NCBI GenBank assembly: GCA_905234855.1
Contig: CAJOIU010000015.1
Span: 1 to 39,606 of the forward strand
Length of the DNA: 39,606 nucleotides
Origin: an uncultured Oscillospiraceae bacterium
GTDB taxonomy: Bacteria; Bacillota; Clostridia; Oscillospirales; Oscillospiraceae
Reading direction: 5' to 3'
The position numbers were made by a program, and so were the translations under genes. Of the stretch, positions 3,153 through 8,868 are shown one piece after another. How positions within the stretch are numbered: the first letter of the stretch is position 1; each line of letters starts with the position of its first letter. The notes under the pieces are model-generated. The model was not told where the DNA came from, did not search any database, and worked only from the letters and a program-made list of their open reading frames with translations.

Positions 3153-4253
3153 TCAGTTGGCCGCTCCGGCCATGATCTGCTCTACCAAGTGCCGTTTCTC
3201 GTATAGTACGCAGCCTCCGGCATGATCCTCCATCAGGTGACCTCCGTCCCGCAGCTCGTGGAAGAGCCGGGAGTCGATGGCCTCCCGCAGGGAGGTCTCC
3301 GCCACATTGATGTCCGAATAGGGCGAGAAGGGACAGGGCTCCGCGCCGCCGTGGGAGTTGATGTGGAAGAAGCCCCGTCCTGCGGCCAGGCAGCCGCCGG
3401 AGCTCTTTTCATCTCCCGGGAAGGACACGAATACCGCTTCGGAGTGGGTTTGACGCAGCCTGTCGATTCCCGCCCGGATGCGCTCCCGCTCCGCGTCCCC
3501 GGGCGCGAGTTGCTTCGCCTCCTCCGTCACCGGGACAAACTCAATATAGAAGACCGCCTTGCAGCCCCGGTCTGTGAGGCTCGTCACGAATTCGTCGGAG
3601 AGGACCTCGTCCAAGTTTTCCGTGGTCACCGTGGCGGAGGCTCCGAACAGCAGGCCCCGCCGGTGGAACTCGTCCATGTTGGCGATGAGCTTGTCGTAGA
3701 TCCCCTCGCCACGACGGGCGTCGGTGGTCGCCTGATCACCCTCGATGCTCATGACCGGAATGAGGTTCCGGCATTTGTCAAACAGGTTAAAATACCACTC
3801 GTCGATGAAGGTACCGTTTGTGAAGATGGGGAACAGGATGCTCTGCATCTTCCCCGCCGCCTCGATAATGTCCCGCCGGAGCATGGGCTCGCCGCCCGCC
3901 AGCAGGATGAAGCTGACGCCCAGCTCATCCGCCTGGCGGAAAATGTCCAGCCACTGGTCGTTTGTGAGCTGTCGCACCGGGGCGCAGTCCTCGGTGGCGT
4001 GGTTCGAGCGGGAATAGCACCCGGCGCAGTGCAGGTTGCAGGCGCTGGTGATACTGGCGATGAGATAGGACGGAACGTGCAGCCCCTTCGCCTCCTCCGC
4101 CGCCCGGCGCTTGGATGCCTTGGCGGAGGCCGCGGCGAATTTTGCCATGAACGCGCTCTCCCGCGGGTCCTTCAAGGTCGCACGCAGCGCGTCTTTTACG
4201 ATGTTTTCCACACCCTCGGTCAGATAAGCCTGGATGTCTTTGATTTTTTCCAT
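3153..4253 (-). CDS. Radical SAM protein with C-terminal Cys cluster
   Basis: 366 aa starting at ATG 4251-4253 behind GCGAGGTG. The radical SAM motif CNLHCAGC places C72, C76 and C79 as 4Fe-4S ligands. AGGEPMLRRDI follows (the SAM-contacting GGEP). Three downstream Cys, at about 288, 307 (EPCPFSPYSD) and 348 (GGC), suggest a short SPASM/twitch-like auxiliary cluster. Residues 1-60 form a charged helical extension (KFAAASAKASKRRAAEEAKG). The class is clear but the substrate is not. Its partners are a 26-aa ORF upstream and a 52-aa membrane peptide plus a PH-like protein downstream, all in one transcription unit. The nearby TetR-type remnant and operator-like repeat suggest it was once TetR-controlled. 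Confidence 0.9.
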   Translation of the reverse strand: MEKIKDIQAYLTEGVENIVKDALRATLKDPRESAFMAKFAAASAKASKRRAAEEAKGLHVPSYLIASITSACNLHCAGCYSRSNHATEDCAPVRQLTNDQWLDIFRQADELGVSFILLAGGEPMLRRDIIEAAGKMQSILFPIFTNGTFIDEWYFNLFDKCRNLIPVMSIEGDQATTDARRGEGIYDKLIANMDEFHRRGLLFGASATVTTENLDEVLSDEFVTSLTDRGCKAVFYIEFVPVTEEAKQLAPGDAERERIRAGIDRLRQTHSEAVFVSFPGDEKSSGGCLAAGRGFFHINSHGGAEPCPFSPYSDINVAETSLREAIDSRLFHELRDGGHLMEDHAGGCVLYEKRHLVEQIMAGAAN

Positions 4254-5028: not shown

Positions 5029-5586
5029 CTCTGGATTTGTGAAGCCGTATCGAAGCTGACCGCCGCCACGGAGAAAACCGCTGCCCGTATTGCTGCCGCG
5101 CTGGAACCGGCTTCGGATATTGCCAGCCTGACAGAGGAAATCGAGGAACTGCGTTCGCAAAAGAACCGCATCCTCGCTCATGCCCGATGTGAGGACGCCG
5201 GGGATATGAAGGCGGATCTGGAGATCAAGGCCGCCAACGAGAAGCTCGCCAAGCCCAAGATGACCGCCAAGCAGGTTCGATACTCGGTCACGCGCTTCCG
5301 AAAGCTGGATGTACGGATTAAGGAACACCGCAAGATGTTGATTGACGTTTTCCTCAACGCGGTGTATCTTTATGATGACAAGGCGGTCATCACCTTCAAT
5401 TACAAGGATGGAGCATCGACCATAACCTTTGATGACATCAATAACACGCTGTGCTCGGGGACGGGTTCGGATTTGGGATCCTCTGGTGCACCAGCTTCAA
5501 AGCCTTGGAACACCCGCATTCAGGTTTTTTTCAAAACCCCATCGGCGCTCCCGCAGCCCATGGGAAACGACAGGCGGTATGCATGA
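5029..5586 (+). pseudogene. Large serine recombinase, C-terminal remnant
   Basis: The frame is open from 5029 with no start codon until 5206. It encodes a coiled-coil stretch (SLTEEIEELRSQKNRIL) and then KLDVRIKEHRKMLIDVFLNA, VYLYDDKAVITFNYKDG and GSDLGSSGAP. This order is typical of the far C-terminus of large serine recombinases of Clostridia integrative elements. The resolvase catalytic domain, recombinase domain and zinc ribbon are all absent. The residues after about 5485 are probably read-through into non-recombinase DNA. The frame's stop codon overlaps the start of the next gene (ATGA at 5583-5586). It is the scar of a lost or rearranged element and differs from the intact recombinase at 37823-39442. 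Confidence 0.75.
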
Positions 5587-8120
5587 AAAAGCTCATCGTC
5601 GGCATCCTCGCCCATGTGGATGCCGGGAAAACAACCCTTTCGGAGGCCATGCTCTACCTCACCGGGCAGATACGGAAGCTCGGCCGGGTCGATCATAGGG
5701 ATACCTTCCTTGACACCCATACCCTTGAACGCGAACGAGGCATCACGATCTTTTCCAAGCAGGCGCGGCTGAAAACGGACGCGCTGGAGCTTACACTGCT
5801 CGATACGCCCGGTCACGCCGACTTTTCCGGTGAGATGGAGCGCACGCTGCCCGCCATGGACTATGCCATCCTCGTCATCAGCGGCACGGACGGTGTACAG
5901 GCTCATACGGAGACACTATGGGAGCTGCTGGCCCGCTATCGTGTGCCGACCTTTGTGTTCATCACCAAAATGGACGCCGCCAAAACGACGCCCGAAGCGC
6001 TGATGGACGATCTGCGTTCCCATCTGTGCGAGGGCTGCATAGAGCTCTCCCGCACCGATGACGAGGCCGTTGCCATGCTGGACGAAACGGCGCTGGATCG
6101 ATATATGGAAACCGGCAGCGTGACGGATGACGAGATCGCCCGTCTCATCCGGGAACGGAAGCTGTTTCCCGTATGCTTCGGCTCCGGGCTGAAGCTCGAT
6201 GGCGTGGAGGATTTCCTGCATACGATCGCGCGCTTCGCGGAGGAACCCGCCTATCCTCCGGTATTCGGCGCACGGGTATACAAGATCGCCCGGGACGGGC
6301 AGGGCAATCGCCTGACCTATATGAAGATCACGGGCGGTTCGCTCTCCGTGCGGGATACGTTGCGGTATCTCCCCCTGCACGGCGGCGAGGCCATCGAGGA
6401 AAAGGCCGCGCAGCTTCGGCTGTATTCCGGCATGAAATTCGAGACGGCGCAGACGGCTGCAGCCGGGAGCGTCGTCGCCGTAACAGGGCTTTCGGCCACA
6501 TGGCCGGGGCAGGGACTCGGCGCGGAGCCGGATACGGAAACGCCGCTTCTGACCCCGGCGCTGGGCTACCGCATCGTGCTGCCGGAGGGCTGCGACGCCC
6601 GTACCATGCTGCCGAAGCTGCGTCAGCTGGAGGAAGAGGAGCCTCTCCTGCATATCGCATGGCAGCCGACCCTTGGCGAGATCCACGTCCAGCTCATGGG
6701 CGCGGTGCAGATCGACATATTGAAAAGCCTTGTCCGCGAGCGGTTTGACGCGGATGTGCAGATCGACGCGGGACATATCCTCTACCGAGAGACCATCGCG
6801 GACACGGTGGAGGGCGTCGGGCATTTCGAGCCGCTGCGGCATTATGCCGAGGTGCATCTGCTGCTGGAGCCCGGGGAGCGGGGGAGCGGGCTCGTGTTCG
6901 ATACGGCGTGCGGCGAGGACGCCCTAGACCTCAACTGGCAGCGGCTGATCCTCACCCATCTGGAGGAAAAGCCCCATCTCGGTGTACTCACCGGCTCGCC
7001 GCTGACGGACGTGAAGATCACGCTTCTCGCCGGGCGCGCCCATCTCAAGCACACCGAGGGCGGCGATTTCCGGCAGGCGACCTATCGCGCGGTGCGGCAG
7101 GGACTGATGCAGGCGCGGAGCGTGCTTCTGGAGCCGTATTATGCCTTCCGGCTGGAGGTTCCCGCAGATCAGATCGGCCGCGCCATCAGCGATATCCATG
7201 CCATGGGCGGAACGCATTCCTCCCCGGAGGCCGCGGGTGACCGCATGGTACTGACCGGTGCCGCGCCGGTGGCCGCCATGGCGGACTATATGACCGAGGT
7301 GGCATCCTATACCCGTGGACGGGGGCGGCTCTCCTGCCATGTGGACGGCTGGCAGCCCTGCCGAAACGCCGAGGCCGTCATCGCGGAGATCGGCTATGAC
7401 CCGGAGGCGGATACCGAAAACACGCCGGACAGCGTTTTCTGCGCCCACGGCGCGGGCTTCAATGTGAAATGGAGCAATGTGCCGGAATACATGCACCTCG
7501 AAAGCGCCCTGCGCAAAAGCGCGGAGCCGGAGCCTGTTCCCCGTGTCAACCGGCGCAACCTCGATATCGCCGAGAAGGAGCTGGAAGCCATTATGGAGCG
7601 GGAATTCGGCCCCATCCGCCGAAAGGTCTACTCCGCGCCCACGGTGAACAGCGCCGTCGGCATCCAGATGCAGGCGAGGAAAAAGAAAGAGCGCGTCATC
7701 GTGGACGGGTATAACGTCATTTTCGCATGGGACGAGCTGAAGGCACTCTCGGAAAAGAGCCTCGATCTCGCCCGCTCCCGGCTCATTGATATACTCATCA
7801 ACTACCAGAGCTATACAAAGTCCGAGGTCGTTCTCGTATTTGACGCTTATAAGGTGCCCGGCGGGCAGGGGACGAAGTACAACGAGGCAAAGCTCCACAT
7901 CGCCTATACCAAGGAGGACGAGACCGCGGATATGTACATCGAGCGGCTCGCGAACGAGATCGGCAAAAACGAATCCGTCCGCGTCGTCACGTCGGATTCA
8001 CTCATCCGCCTCTCCGCGCTGCGCTCCGGCGTTCTGCGCACCTCCTCCCGGGAGTTTCAGAACGAGGTGGATTGGGTGCTGGAGCAGATCGGACAGCTCG
8101 TGAAAAAATCACAGGAGTAA
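5583..8120 (+). CDS. Ribosome-protection-type GTPase fused to a Rae1/YacP-like NYN nuclease domain
   Basis: 845 aa from ATG 5583, where MKKLIVGILAHVDAGKTT matches the start of the Tet(M)/EF-G G domain; the longer frame upstream is recombinase remnant. G1 is AHVDAGKTT (10-18), G2 RGIT, G3 DTPGH (D74) and G4 TKMD (128-131) instead of the usual NKxD. Residues to about 640 follow the Tet(M)/Tet(O) domain order, but the Tet(M) domain IV loop Y-S-P-V-S, which displaces tetracycline, is not conserved. Residues about 700-845 form a YacP/Rae1-type NYN domain (VDGYNVIFAW, YQSYT, VVLVFDAYK, TKEDETAD, VTSD, REFQNEV) with acidic residues D708, D754, D783 and D805. In Bacillus, Rae1 cleaves mRNA in the ribosomal A site. 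The fusion predicts GTP-driven entry at the A site coupled to mRNA cleavage. The gene is 1 nt from ylmH. No promoter is evident upstream. Confidence 0.9.
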   Translation: MKKLIVGILAHVDAGKTTLSEAMLYLTGQIRKLGRVDHRDTFLDTHTLERERGITIFSKQARLKTDALELTLLDTPGHADFSGEMERTLPAMDYAILVISGTDGVQAHTETLWELLARYRVPTFVFITKMDAAKTTPEALMDDLRSHLCEGCIELSRTDDEAVAMLDETALDRYMETGSVTDDEIARLIRERKLFPVCFGSGLKLDGVEDFLHTIARFAEEPAYPPVFGARVYKIARDGQGNRLTYMKITGGSLSVRDTLRYLPLHGGEAIEEKAAQLRLYSGMKFETAQTAAAGSVVAVTGLSATWPGQGLGAEPDTETPLLTPALGYRIVLPEGCDARTMLPKLRQLEEEEPLLHIAWQPTLGEIHVQLMGAVQIDILKSLVRERFDADVQIDAGHILYRETIADTVEGVGHFEPLRHYAEVHLLLEPGERGSGLVFDTACGEDALDLNWQRLILTHLEEKPHLGVLTGSPLTDVKITLLAGRAHLKHTEGGDFRQATYRAVRQGLMQARSVLLEPYYAFRLEVPADQIGRAISDIHAMGGTHSSPEAAGDRMVLTGAAPVAAMADYMTEVASYTRGRGRLSCHVDGWQPCRNAEAVIAEIGYDPEADTENTPDSVFCAHGAGFNVKWSNVPEYMHLESALRKSAEPEPVPRVNRRNLDIAEKELEAIMEREFGPIRRKVYSAPTVNSAVGIQMQARKKKERVIVDGYNVIFAWDELKALSEKSLDLARSRLIDILINYQSYTKSEVVLVFDAYKVPGGQGTKYNEAKLHIAYTKEDETADMYIERLANEIGKNESVRVVTSDSLIRLSALRSGVLRTSSREFQNEVDWVLEQIGQLVKKSQE

Positions 8121-8121
8121 C

Positions 8122-8868
8122 ATGGAATCGGATTTTATCAAACGCATCGGGGACCTCGCGGATCGCTGTGAGCGGACGAGCTCCGTGACTGCCACGGGCT
8201 TTCTCACCCCGGCGGAGCAGTATGAGCTGCGGGCATGGGCAGCCTCCCATCCCGGTGTGAGGCTGCATCTCACCGGCGGGCAGCCAGACTGCGAGCGGCA
8301 GGCGGCGTTTTTCCTGCCATATTATATGGAGGCAGAAGACCTTGACCCGTCCGAATACATTCGCGCTGTGCGGATCGACGCCTATTTCGGCGAGCCGACG
8401 CACCGCGACTATATGGGTGCGGCGCTGGGTCTTGGCATCCAGCGGGAATGGATCGGGGATTTCCGCGTTGTCGGAACCACCGCCTATGTTTTTTGCCTCC
8501 CCAGCGTGGAGCCGCTGCTCCTCGATGAGCTGACGAAGGCAGGGCGCGTCAGCGTCAAAACAAACTCCTGCCCCCTCGCGGACGTTCCCACGCCGGAGCG
8601 CAAGGTGAAAAAGCTGAGTTTCACAGTGAAAAGCCCCCGGCTTGACGCGGTGGCAGGCTCCATGTTCGGCCTTTCCCGCACCGCGGCGGCGGAGCTCATC
8701 CGCATGGGCGCGGCTAGCCTCAACTACACGCCCTGCCTCCATGTGGACGCCCCCGTGAAGGAGGGCGACGTTATCTCCCTGCGGGGGCATGGCAAGGGAG
8801 CGGTCACCGCCTTCGGCAGCCGCTCCCGCAAGGATCGGCTGTTTGTGGAAGCGGAGGTATATTTATAA
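8122..8868 (+). CDS. ylmH: YlmH-family S4 RNA-binding protein
   Basis: 248 aa; ATG 8122 lies 1 nt after the preceding stop with AGGAG at 8113-8117, so translation is probably coupled. Residues 1-165 form the YlmH N-terminal region (LTPAEQYELRAWAASH, FLPYYM, YIRAVRIDA, HRDYMGAALGLGIQREWIGD, YVFCLPSV). Residues about 175-245 are the S4 domain (LDAVAGSMFGLSRTAAAELI, VKEGDVISLRGHGKG). In Bacillus, YlmH binds 50S-peptidyl-tRNA complexes in ribosome-associated quality control; in Firmicutes it usually sits in the ylm/divIVA cluster. Its location here, in one operon with a ribosome-directed GTPase-nuclease fusion, points to a shared role on stalled ribosomes (inference). Confidence 0.93.
   Translation: MESDFIKRIGDLADRCERTSSVTATGFLTPAEQYELRAWAASHPGVRLHLTGGQPDCERQAAFFLPYYMEAEDLDPSEYIRAVRIDAYFGEPTHRDYMGAALGLGIQREWIGDFRVVGTTAYVFCLPSVEPLLLDELTKAGRVSVKTNSCPLADVPTPERKVKKLSFTVKSPRLDAVAGSMFGLSRTAAAELIRMGAASLNYTPCLHVDAPVKEGDVISLRGHGKGAVTAFGSRSRKDRLFVEAEVYL

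What the first reader, a model, noticed from the sequence alone, without database searches (positions are those of the whole stretch)
5583..8868. Ribosome-directed GTPase fused to an A-site-type nuclease, coupled to ylmH: a candidate translation rescue operon
Seen: an 845-aa protein with a Tet(M)/EF-G-like GTPase body and a C-terminal NYN domain that follows YacP/Rae1 block by block (VDGYN, YQSYT, VFDA, TKEDETAD, VTSD). It is followed after 1 nt by ylmH. Known: Tet(M)-type GTPases enter the ribosomal A site; Bacillus Rae1 cleaves mRNA in the A site; YlmH acts on stalled 50S-peptidyl-tRNA complexes. Inference: one polypeptide may use GTP to reach the A site of a stalled ribosome and cut the mRNA, with YlmH handling the peptidyl-tRNA afterwards. 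I know of no experimental description of this combination.
Basis: partly seen in the sequence, partly recalled or inferred. Interest (0 to 1): 0.8.

Follow-up and report, generated by a model that had tools for sequence, protein, structure and literature searches.

The report
Ribosome GTPase carrying an RNA cutter
A chromosomal protein of gut Clostridia joins a ribosome-type GTPase to the RNA-cutting enzyme Rae1, probably to cut messenger RNA on stalled ribosomes; the fusion was noted in print in 2015, but we found no test of what it does.

Summary
In detail: window 5583-8120 encodes an intact 845-aa protein, an EF-G/Tet-like translational GTPase (1-640) joined by a flexible linker to a YacP/Rae1 NYN nuclease (705-844), with catalytic residues conserved in relatives. 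The architecture is not new: Atkinson 2015 (PMC4342817) noted it in ten clostridial species.

Added here: (1) of 293 genomes of the class, 104 carry the fusion and 4 of these a second NYN_YacP, against 88 of 189 without it, so the fusion appears to take Rae1's place (not kinship-corrected). (2) The GTPase part has one origin (100/99); unfused relatives exist, and 13 of 19 genomes with one have a separate Rae1. The short NYN tree is less clear. (3) In 74 of 103 fused rows the Rae1 match stops at least 20 positions early; in 0 of 30 separate ones. (4) The domain-IV tip is neither EF-G's nor Tet(M)'s.

The ylmH "operon" is genus-only: 32 of 35 genus genomes, 0 of 33 fused genomes outside. An EF-G-like domain IV and Rae1 are both placed in the A site, so they should act in turn.

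Best reading: a GTPase-delivered Rae1 that clears the A site, then cuts the mRNA. Not shown experimentally.

The parts
5583..8120 (+). Fusion gene: translational GTPase + NYN_YacP (Rae1-type) nuclease, 845 aa
5583..7373 (+). GTPase body, EF-G-like domains (residues 1-597); intact P-loop, switch regions with H78, G4 motif TKMD (N in place of T in the unfused relatives)
   Evidence: Pfam, alignment, residue counts, Foldseek
7032..7082 (+). Domain-IV tip loop GRAHLKHTEGGDFRQAT (residues 484-500); H487 aligns with T. thermophilus EF-G H573; Tet proteins have YYSPVSTPADF here
7356..7499 (+). C-terminal extension (residues about 592-639, PCxN...SVFCxHGxGFxVxWxxVxxYMH), shared by fused and unfused members, absent from the Tet proteins aligned; the 8 unfused proteins aligned end within about 13 residues of it
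   Evidence: modelled as hairpin + helix
7515..7682 (+). Linker, residues 645-700: pLDDT under 50 at 645-662 and 679-700 around a predicted helix 664-675
   Evidence: AlphaFold2 model
7695..8117 (+). NYN_YacP/Rae1 nuclease domain (705-845); acidic residues D708, D754, E778, D783, D805; the match to a Rae1 profile ends about 27 positions before the profile does
8122..8868 (+). ylmH-like gene (248 aa), 1 nt downstream; neighbour in this genus only, as far as examined

Best explanation
The protein is a GTPase-delivered Rae1. SHOWN by sequence: an EF-G-class GTPase with intact nucleotide-binding and catalytic residues is covalently joined, through a flexible linker of about 55 residues, to a Rae1-type NYN nuclease with an intact acidic site. 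SHOWN by comparison: genomes with the fusion rarely have another NYN_YacP; it stands in for separate Rae1 in about a third (104 of 293) of the class sample. INFERRED: the GTP-bound body docks like EF-G/Tet factors on ribosomes paused with a free or clearable A site; its domain-IV tip (H487, KHTxGGDFR) empties or advances the A site. On GTP hydrolysis domain IV withdraws, and the tethered NYN domain enters the vacated A site and cuts the mRNA there, as B. subtilis Rae1 is proposed to do. The cut ribosome then goes to tmRNA or RqcH/YlmH, whose genes are present in this genome. The ylmH adjacency is not part of the mechanism outside this genus. Confidence: about 0.6 that the core claim is right (ribosome-targeted mRNA cutting in place of Rae1); about 0.3 for the clear-then-cut order.
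For: Near mutual exclusion: 4 of 104 fused genomes against 88 of 189 others carry a further or separate NYN_YacP, Fisher p 2e-16, not corrected for kinship. Families f43, f44, f48 and f68 contain both fused genomes and genomes with a separate NYN only; the four double carriers are three genomes of one genus (g98, f48) and one of f72. The fused GTPase part has one origin: 33 rows, support 100/99. Both halves exist apart: 19 genomes have an unfused GTPase, 13 of them also a separate NYN_YacP. Asp 708, 754, 783, 805 are kept in 101 of 101 fused rows and 39 of 39 NYN-only rows; K16, D74, D131 in 68 of 68 and H78 in 67 of 68 full-length fused rows (some genomes give two rows). Separate Rae1 lies between an rlmB-like SpoU methylase and a sigma-factor gene at L152, L157, L161 and L163 (four of the eleven loci listed, the only ones with both neighbours scanned), while in this genome the best SpoU methylase gene is followed directly by another gene. 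In 74 of 103 fused rows the Rae1 match ends at least 20 positions early, in 0 of 30 separate ones (the profile was built from those 30, so their figure is by construction). R166P, a change near the end of Rae1, came out with the loss-of-function rae1 suppressors in B. subtilis (PMC6613710, passages), so the GTPase body may have taken over a role of that tail. tmRNA, an RqcH-type NFACT protein and YlmH are encoded in the same genome.
Against: No experiment. Exclusion could reflect dispensability of a duplicate, or shared descent, rather than equal function. 95 of 293 genomes have neither (one of them, G347, has broken GTPase pieces), so the function is not needed throughout the class. 6 of 19 genomes with an unfused GTPase have no NYN_YacP, and the association of unfused GTPase with NYN is weak (p 0.054) and mostly from one family (9 of 13 in f59). 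The NYN tree does not make the fused domains one group: 4 changes, at least 3 forced by starred branches, one exception being the contig-cut row L049. No conserved neighbourhood was found. Domain IV and Rae1 compete for one site, so a timed hand-over has to be assumed. 20 of 103 fused rows keep the Rae1 tail to its end, and some early-ending rows still have 18-21 further residues, which may be a diverged tail. The model gives no reliable placement of the NYN against the body (pTM 0.66).
Confidence: 0.6

Rival explanations
1. Two independent jobs in one chain: the GTPase does an EF-G2/LepA-like task and the NYN does ordinary Rae1 work; the fusion only keeps them at equal amounts, with no hand-over.
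For: Both halves exist alone: GTPase without any NYN_YacP in 6 genomes, NYN without this GTPase in 75 of 293 (one of the 75, G401, is below the Pfam cut-off). The linker is long and predicted disordered.
Against: One ancient fusion of the GTPase part kept across many families with its catalytic residues; early end of the Rae1 match only in fused copies.
Confidence: 0.2
2. Atkinson's proposal: the NYN cleaves rRNA (or tRNA), as an unusual step of antibiotic resistance.
For: Proposed in PMC4342817 (passages), before the 2017 Rae1 paper. PMC10100781 (passages) discusses prolonged stalling by chloramphenicol as a situation in which Rae1 might act.
Against: The domain is a plain Rae1 relative (E 1e-23), and Rae1 is described as a translation-dependent mRNA nuclease (PMC10100781; PMC6613710; passages). 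It is kept in 35 of 35 genus genomes, not scattered like an acquired resistance gene.
Confidence: 0.1
3. A tetracycline ribosomal protection protein with an accessory nuclease (as RefSeq names it in Agathobacter rectalis).
For: Best NCBIfam model is tet_protect (373 bits); RefSeq product name in Agathobacter rectalis.
Against: Below the tet_protect cut-off of 775; four comparison proteins (L167-L170) score 811-1001. Loop III has none of SPVSTP, though a triple S508A P509A V510A Tet(M) can still be active (PMC4750697, passage), so this alone does not decide. Three fused genomes (G060, G192, G128) also carry a protein that passes the Tet cut-off.
Confidence: 0.06
4. One reading: fusion plus YlmH form one dedicated rescue unit.
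For: 1-nt spacing in the window and ylmH close downstream in 32 of 35 genus genomes, 14 of them with an estimated gap of 16 nt or less.
Against: 0 of 33 fused genomes outside the genus; in 18 of 32 genus genomes the estimated gap is 52-2011 nt. ylmH is also followed by spoVAD in 10 of 30 genus loci held, the others being cut short or without the hit, so the cluster looks like genus-level gene order.
Confidence: 0.04

Closest known systems
Tet proteins with a YacP-like NYN domain in ten clostridial species (Atkinson 2015, PMC4342817)
   Same: Same domain architecture and host group; almost certainly the same family (their sequences were not compared here)
   Different: The passages read give one remark and a resistance hypothesis; they do not mention replacement of Rae1, unfused relatives, a single origin or this tip loop
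Rae1/YacP of Bacillus subtilis
   Same: NYN domain with the same acidic residues; E 1e-23 over 138 residues
   Different: Rae1 is a separate protein of about 170 aa (recalled), in clostridial relatives found in rlmB-rae1-sigma-factor order; here it is a C-terminal domain behind a GTPase, at another locus, in most rows with an early-ending match
Tet(M)/Tet(O) ribosomal protection proteins
   Same: EF-G-like domains; highest-scoring NCBIfam model
   Different: Below the family cut-off, different loop III and C-terminal extension, present in every genus genome examined
EF-G / EF-G2
   Same: Same fold class; H487 aligns with EF-G H573
   Different: 244 bits against an EF-G cut-off of 659; shorter stretch between G-domain parts (27 residues against 75 in T. 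thermophilus EF-G); extra C-terminal extension and nuclease
YlmH (RQC factor, PMC11317155)
   Same: The downstream gene in this genus is a YlmH relative
   Different: Not linked to the fusion in the 33 fused genomes examined outside the genus

Membership tests
Rae1/YacP | NYN_YacP domain above Pfam cut-off | tested here: met
   145.1 bits, cut-off 24.6
Rae1/YacP | Acidic NYN/PIN active site | tested here: met
   D708, D754, D783, D805 in 101 of 101 fused rows; E778 in 97 of 101. That these are the catalytic positions is recalled from general knowledge of NYN/PIN nucleases
Rae1/YacP | Separate small protein next to an rlmB-like gene | tested here: not met
   Order seen at four separate-Rae1 loci; here fused, and the best SpoU methylase gene of this genome is followed by another gene
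Rae1/YacP | C-terminal tail after the NYN core | tested here: not met
   In the genus the profile match ends 27-29 positions early with 2-4 residues left (30 of 30 rows); 74 of 103 fused rows end at least 20 early, 0 of 30 separate
Rae1/YacP | Translation-dependent A-site mRNA cleavage | not testable with these tools
   Needs RNA end mapping; Leroy 2017 not held
Tet ribosomal protection protein | NCBIfam tet_protect above cut-off 775 | tested here: not met
   373.4 bits; four comparison Tet proteins 811-1001
Tet ribosomal protection protein | Loop III sequence around TetM Pro509 | tested here: not met
   KHTEGGDF in place of SPVSTPADF; Pro509 contact from PMC8161019 passage; the residues are not strictly needed in Tet(M) (PMC4750697 passage)
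Tet ribosomal protection protein | Confers tetracycline resistance | not testable with these tools
   No phenotype data
EF-G | NCBIfam EF-G above cut-off 659.4 | tested here: not met
   244.4 bits
Translational GTPase superfamily | Intact G motifs and EF-G domain order | tested here: met
   K16, D74, D131 in 68 of 68, H78 in 67 of 68; Pfam domain order; Foldseek E 1.5e-50. G4 first letter is N in 39, T in 27, S in 2 of 68
Clostridial Tet-NYN fusions (Atkinson 2015) | Tet-like GTPase with C-terminal YacP-like NYN in Clostridiales | tested here: met
Rescue operon with ylmH | Adjacency conserved in related genomes | tested here: not met
   32 of 35 in genus, 0 of 33 fused genomes outside

The most novel reading that the evidence does not exclude
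A bacterial mRNA surveillance factor in which one GTPase cycle both clears the A site of a stalled ribosome and hands the site to a tethered nuclease that cuts the mRNA: GTP-timed no-go decay in a single polypeptide. In another bacterial family (f59) it would work as two separate proteins, GTPase plus Rae1.
Probability: 0.3. Interest if true: 0.85.

Novelty: new variant of a known kind. Interest (0 to 1): 0.6.

Why it matters
[quoted passage not shown] If many Clostridia, among them Monoglobus pectinilyticus, Agathobacter rectalis and Intestinimonas butyriciproducens, carry Rae1 on a translational GTPase, the fusion suggests a delivery step and makes it testable, also in species in which the two parts are separate. 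It also warns that a 'tetracycline resistance' name in a gut genome (Agathobacter rectalis) can be this housekeeping-like factor.

Tried and rejected
ylmH operon as a clue: rejected beyond the genus. Conserved neighbours of the GTPase clade: none above 5 of 63 loci; that script picks the longest ORF per region and mis-picks strands in GC-rich DNA (it missed ylmH in the window itself), so it is a weak negative. Mobile gene: of 1372 plasmid records with a match, 2 cover at least 80% of the query, both on large clostridial replicons typed non-mobilizable; unfused relatives occur on Ligilactobacillus salivarius plasmids and in two IMG/VR contigs. The EF-G rows were wrong (antisense ORFs picked) and were dropped; the EF-G comparison rests on the PDB alignment. 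The fold search is dominated by EF-G chains, with modest TM-scores, and adds nothing about the NYN part. The link between unfused GTPase and separate NYN is weak (p 0.054).

Counting notes. In one search five genomes (G377, G318, G195, G303, G330) were assigned to 'fused' although the ORF is broken by a contig end or frame break; G347 (broken GTPase pieces, no NYN hit) falls in the 95 'neither'; G401 (NYN below the Pfam cut-off) is among the 75 'NYN alone'. Part of the NYN rows were not printed; those genomes were classed from the genome table, and for three of the four double carriers (G269, G320, G352) the second NYN row was not seen, only that each has one GTPase match. In one search, 32 of 33 hits were clearly fused; the 33rd (L049) runs off its contig edge but was labelled standalone in the tree and counted among the 39 NYN-only rows, as was the 313-aa frame L090. 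Rows are sequences, not genomes: some genomes are present twice and 29-30 rows are from one genus. L135 was left out and sixteen rows out. From, 72 of 82 loci (those included) gave a full-length ORF, of which 59 went with the window into the alignment for the structure.

Not followed: structure on a 70S ribosome (single-chain prediction only), a kinship-corrected exclusion test (no species tree), the neighbours of six further separate-Rae1 loci listed (and only the downstream one of L164 was scanned), and the DNA between the fusion and ylmH in the 18 wider-spaced genus genomes.


Full report
WHAT IS THERE. Window 5583-8120 (+) is one intact ORF of 845 aa. Residues 4-596 carry the domains of an EF-G-type translational GTPase and residues 705-844 an NYN_YacP nuclease domain. 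The NYN part matches B. subtilis YacP/Rae1 (5mq8, 5mq9) at E about 1e-23. The AlphaFold2 model (60-sequence alignment; mean pLDDT 85.2, pTM 0.66) shows an EF-G-like body, a hairpin-plus-helix extension at 617-636, two low-confidence stretches (645-662, 679-700) around a helix (664-675), and the NYN domain from 703. The 50 matches shown by Foldseek in the PDB are EF-G/EF-2-type factors wherever the title names the factor. ylmH starts 1 nt after the stop codon, followed by spoVAD and a SpoVAC/SpoVAEB gene.

WHERE IT OCCURS. All 35 genomes of the genus, own included, have it, at 70-77% identity in the other 34; so do 5 of the 25 genomes outside the genus in that call. In an order-wide sample of 117 genomes, 33 have an NYN_YacP match, each exactly one; 32 are in frames of at least 833 aa and the last runs off its contig edge. 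In a class sample of 293 genomes (at least 90% complete, the own genome at 82.6% added), 192 have an NYN_YacP match, 191 above the cut-off, 188 exactly one. Combining this with a search by the GTPase part gives: fused 104 (five of them across contig or frame breaks), unfused GTPase with separate NYN 13, unfused GTPase without NYN 6, NYN alone 75, neither 95. Four of the 104 fused genomes carry a second NYN_YacP. In a phylum sample of 348 genomes, 26 pass E 1e-90: 20 (own included) have open frames of 857-927 aa, as in the fused form, and 6 have frames of 651-674 aa; of these six, four align over about residues 1-645, one (G741) over 227-641, and one (G764) is more distant at 36% identity. Named carriers include Monoglobus pectinilyticus (RefSeq 'translation factor GTPase family protein'), Agathobacter rectalis (RefSeq 'TetM/TetW/TetO/TetS family') and Intestinimonas butyriciproducens (L234). 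The class is Clostridia by these records; the window's own genome is an unnamed, probably Oscillospiraceae-related genome, judging by the nearest titled records.

THE FUSION APPEARS TO TAKE THE PLACE OF RAE1. A further or separate NYN_YacP occurs in 4 of 104 fused genomes against 88 of 189 others (Fisher p 2e-16; not corrected for kinship). Families f43, f44, f48 and f68 each hold fused genomes and genomes with a separate NYN only; the four double carriers are three genomes of one f48 genus and one of f72. Separate Rae1 lies between an rlmB-like SpoU methylase and a sigma-factor gene at the four loci with both neighbours scanned (L152, L157, L161, L163), the order known from Bacillus (recalled). 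Seven other loci listed were not scanned on both sides. In this genome the best of three SpoU methylase hits is followed directly by another gene, and the fusion is its only NYN_YacP.

ONE ORIGIN OF THE FUSED GTPASE. In a careful tree of the trimmed GTPase part (56 rows) the 33 fused rows lie on one side of a branch with support 100/99; two quick trees agree (98). Unfused relatives lie next to them, and proteins that pass NCBI's Tet cut-off (L167-L170) lie far outside. The NYN tree (101 rows, 173 columns) is less tidy and does not give one fused group: 4 changes, at least 3 forced by starred branches. 28 of 31 rows labelled standalone form one group, two more (from G353 and G368, both with an unfused GTPase) lie beside a group of 19 fused rows, and the third exception is the contig-cut L049. 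It therefore does not independently support a single fusion, and exchange of the NYN part is possible.

BOTH ACTIVE SITES ARE KEPT. Asp 708, 754, 783 and 805 are present in 101 of 101 fused rows and 39 of 39 NYN-only rows; Glu 778 in 97 of 101 fused and 32 of 39 NYN-only. K16, D74 and D131 are present in 68 of 68 full-length fused rows and H78 in 67 of 68. The first G4 letter is N in 39, T (as in the window) in 27 and S in 2 of 68.

THE TIP AND THE TAIL. The domain-IV tip, GRAHLKHTEGGDFRQAT, is shared by fused and unfused members and differs from the Tet tip (YYSPVSTPADF or YYSPVSTPSDF in L167-L170). H487 aligns with T. thermophilus EF-G H573 and is kept in 94 of 100 fused rows with a residue there (the others have S in 5 and G in 1) and in 20 of 20 unfused rows; EF-G H573 is recalled as important for translocation. 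Members share an extension after domain V (592-639) with C593, C620 and H638 kept in 20 of 20 unfused rows; the 8 unfused proteins aligned end within about 13 residues of it. Against a profile of 30 separate Rae1 proteins, 74 of 103 fused rows stop at least 20 positions early (30 of 30 genus rows, 44 of 73 others); the 30 separate ones reach the end, as they must, since the profile was made from them. In the genus only 2-4 residues remain after the match; in some others 18-21 remain, which may be a diverged tail. In B. subtilis a missense change near the end of Rae1 (R166P) was recovered among loss-of-function efp suppressors (PMC6613710, passages). A tail needed by free Rae1 but dispensable in the fusion would fit a body that now does the docking; this is inference.

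YLMH. ylmH lies close downstream on the same strand in 32 of 35 genus genomes (in two others it is on another contig, one has no YlmH hit), with estimated gaps from -30 to 2011 nt. In 33 fused genomes outside the genus it is never near: 26 on another contig, 4 on the same contig at least 17 kb away, 3 without a YlmH hit. YlmH's role in ribosome-associated quality control is experimental in B. subtilis (PMC11317155, abstract and passages), but the link to the fusion is genus-level gene order.

HOW IT MOST LIKELY WORKS. Shown: architecture, conserved catalytic residues, replacement pattern. From the literature: Tet-type factors bind in the A site and TetM Pro509 reaches the tetracycline site in the decoding region (PMC8161019, passages); [quoted passage not shown] PMC6613710; passages). 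Both therefore claim the same space, so simultaneous action on one ribosome is unlikely. The simplest order is: the GTPase docks and clears or advances the A site, hydrolyses GTP, withdraws domain IV, and the NYN on its flexible linker enters and cuts. The resulting truncated-mRNA complex would be a substrate for tmRNA or RqcH/YlmH, for which this genome has genes. The order of steps and the substrate are not shown.

PRIOR ART. [quoted passage not shown] Eight full-text searches aimed at Rae1, NYN or the fusion listed no experimental study of the fusion; some searches were listed in full, the others only in part, and titles and abstract starts were seen. Leroy 2017 and Condon 2018 on Rae1 are not held, so a mention there cannot be excluded.

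VERDICT. The architecture is known; the replacement pattern, the single origin of the fused GTPase, the split versions and the early-ending Rae1 match were not seen in the papers read and make a testable case for GTPase-delivered mRNA cleavage.

Noticed in passing
window 5038-5586 (+): Open frame running up to and overlapping the fusion start that reads like the C-terminal end of a large serine recombinase (recalled resemblance; no Pfam hit for its ATG-started part; two weak tblastn matches, 30-32%, to unannotated places on Subdoligranulum plasmids): probably a remnant of a mobile element.
   Followed up: partly
L252, L253 (IMG/VR contigs): A 726-aa GTPase of the same clade without the NYN domain, at the end of a viral-collection contig; in L252 an ORF nearby reads like a phage lysozyme (recalled). 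Probably a host gene flanking a provirus.
   Followed up: partly
Ligilactobacillus salivarius plasmids (hits H3-H12): GTPase matching residues 1-640 only (50.6-50.7% identity) on plasmids of 213-231 kb, named tetracycline resistance protein.
   Followed up: no
NZ_CP143948.1 24767-27568: The Agathobacter rectalis fusion is annotated as a Tet(M/W/O/S) resistance protein, a likely misannotation relevant to resistome surveys.
   Followed up: partly
P0001 residues 593, 620, 638: Cys, Cys, His in the C-terminal extension, kept in 20 of 20 unfused rows and nearly all fused rows; might bind a metal.
   Followed up: no
genus loci L006-L031, between fusion and ylmH: The gap between fusion and ylmH varies from none to about 2 kb within one genus; what fills the larger gaps was not examined.
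   Followed up: no
window 3153-4253 (-): Radical SAM protein (Pfam 48.8 bits) with matches to several heme and peptide maturases, below all NCBIfam cut-offs shown.
   Followed up: no
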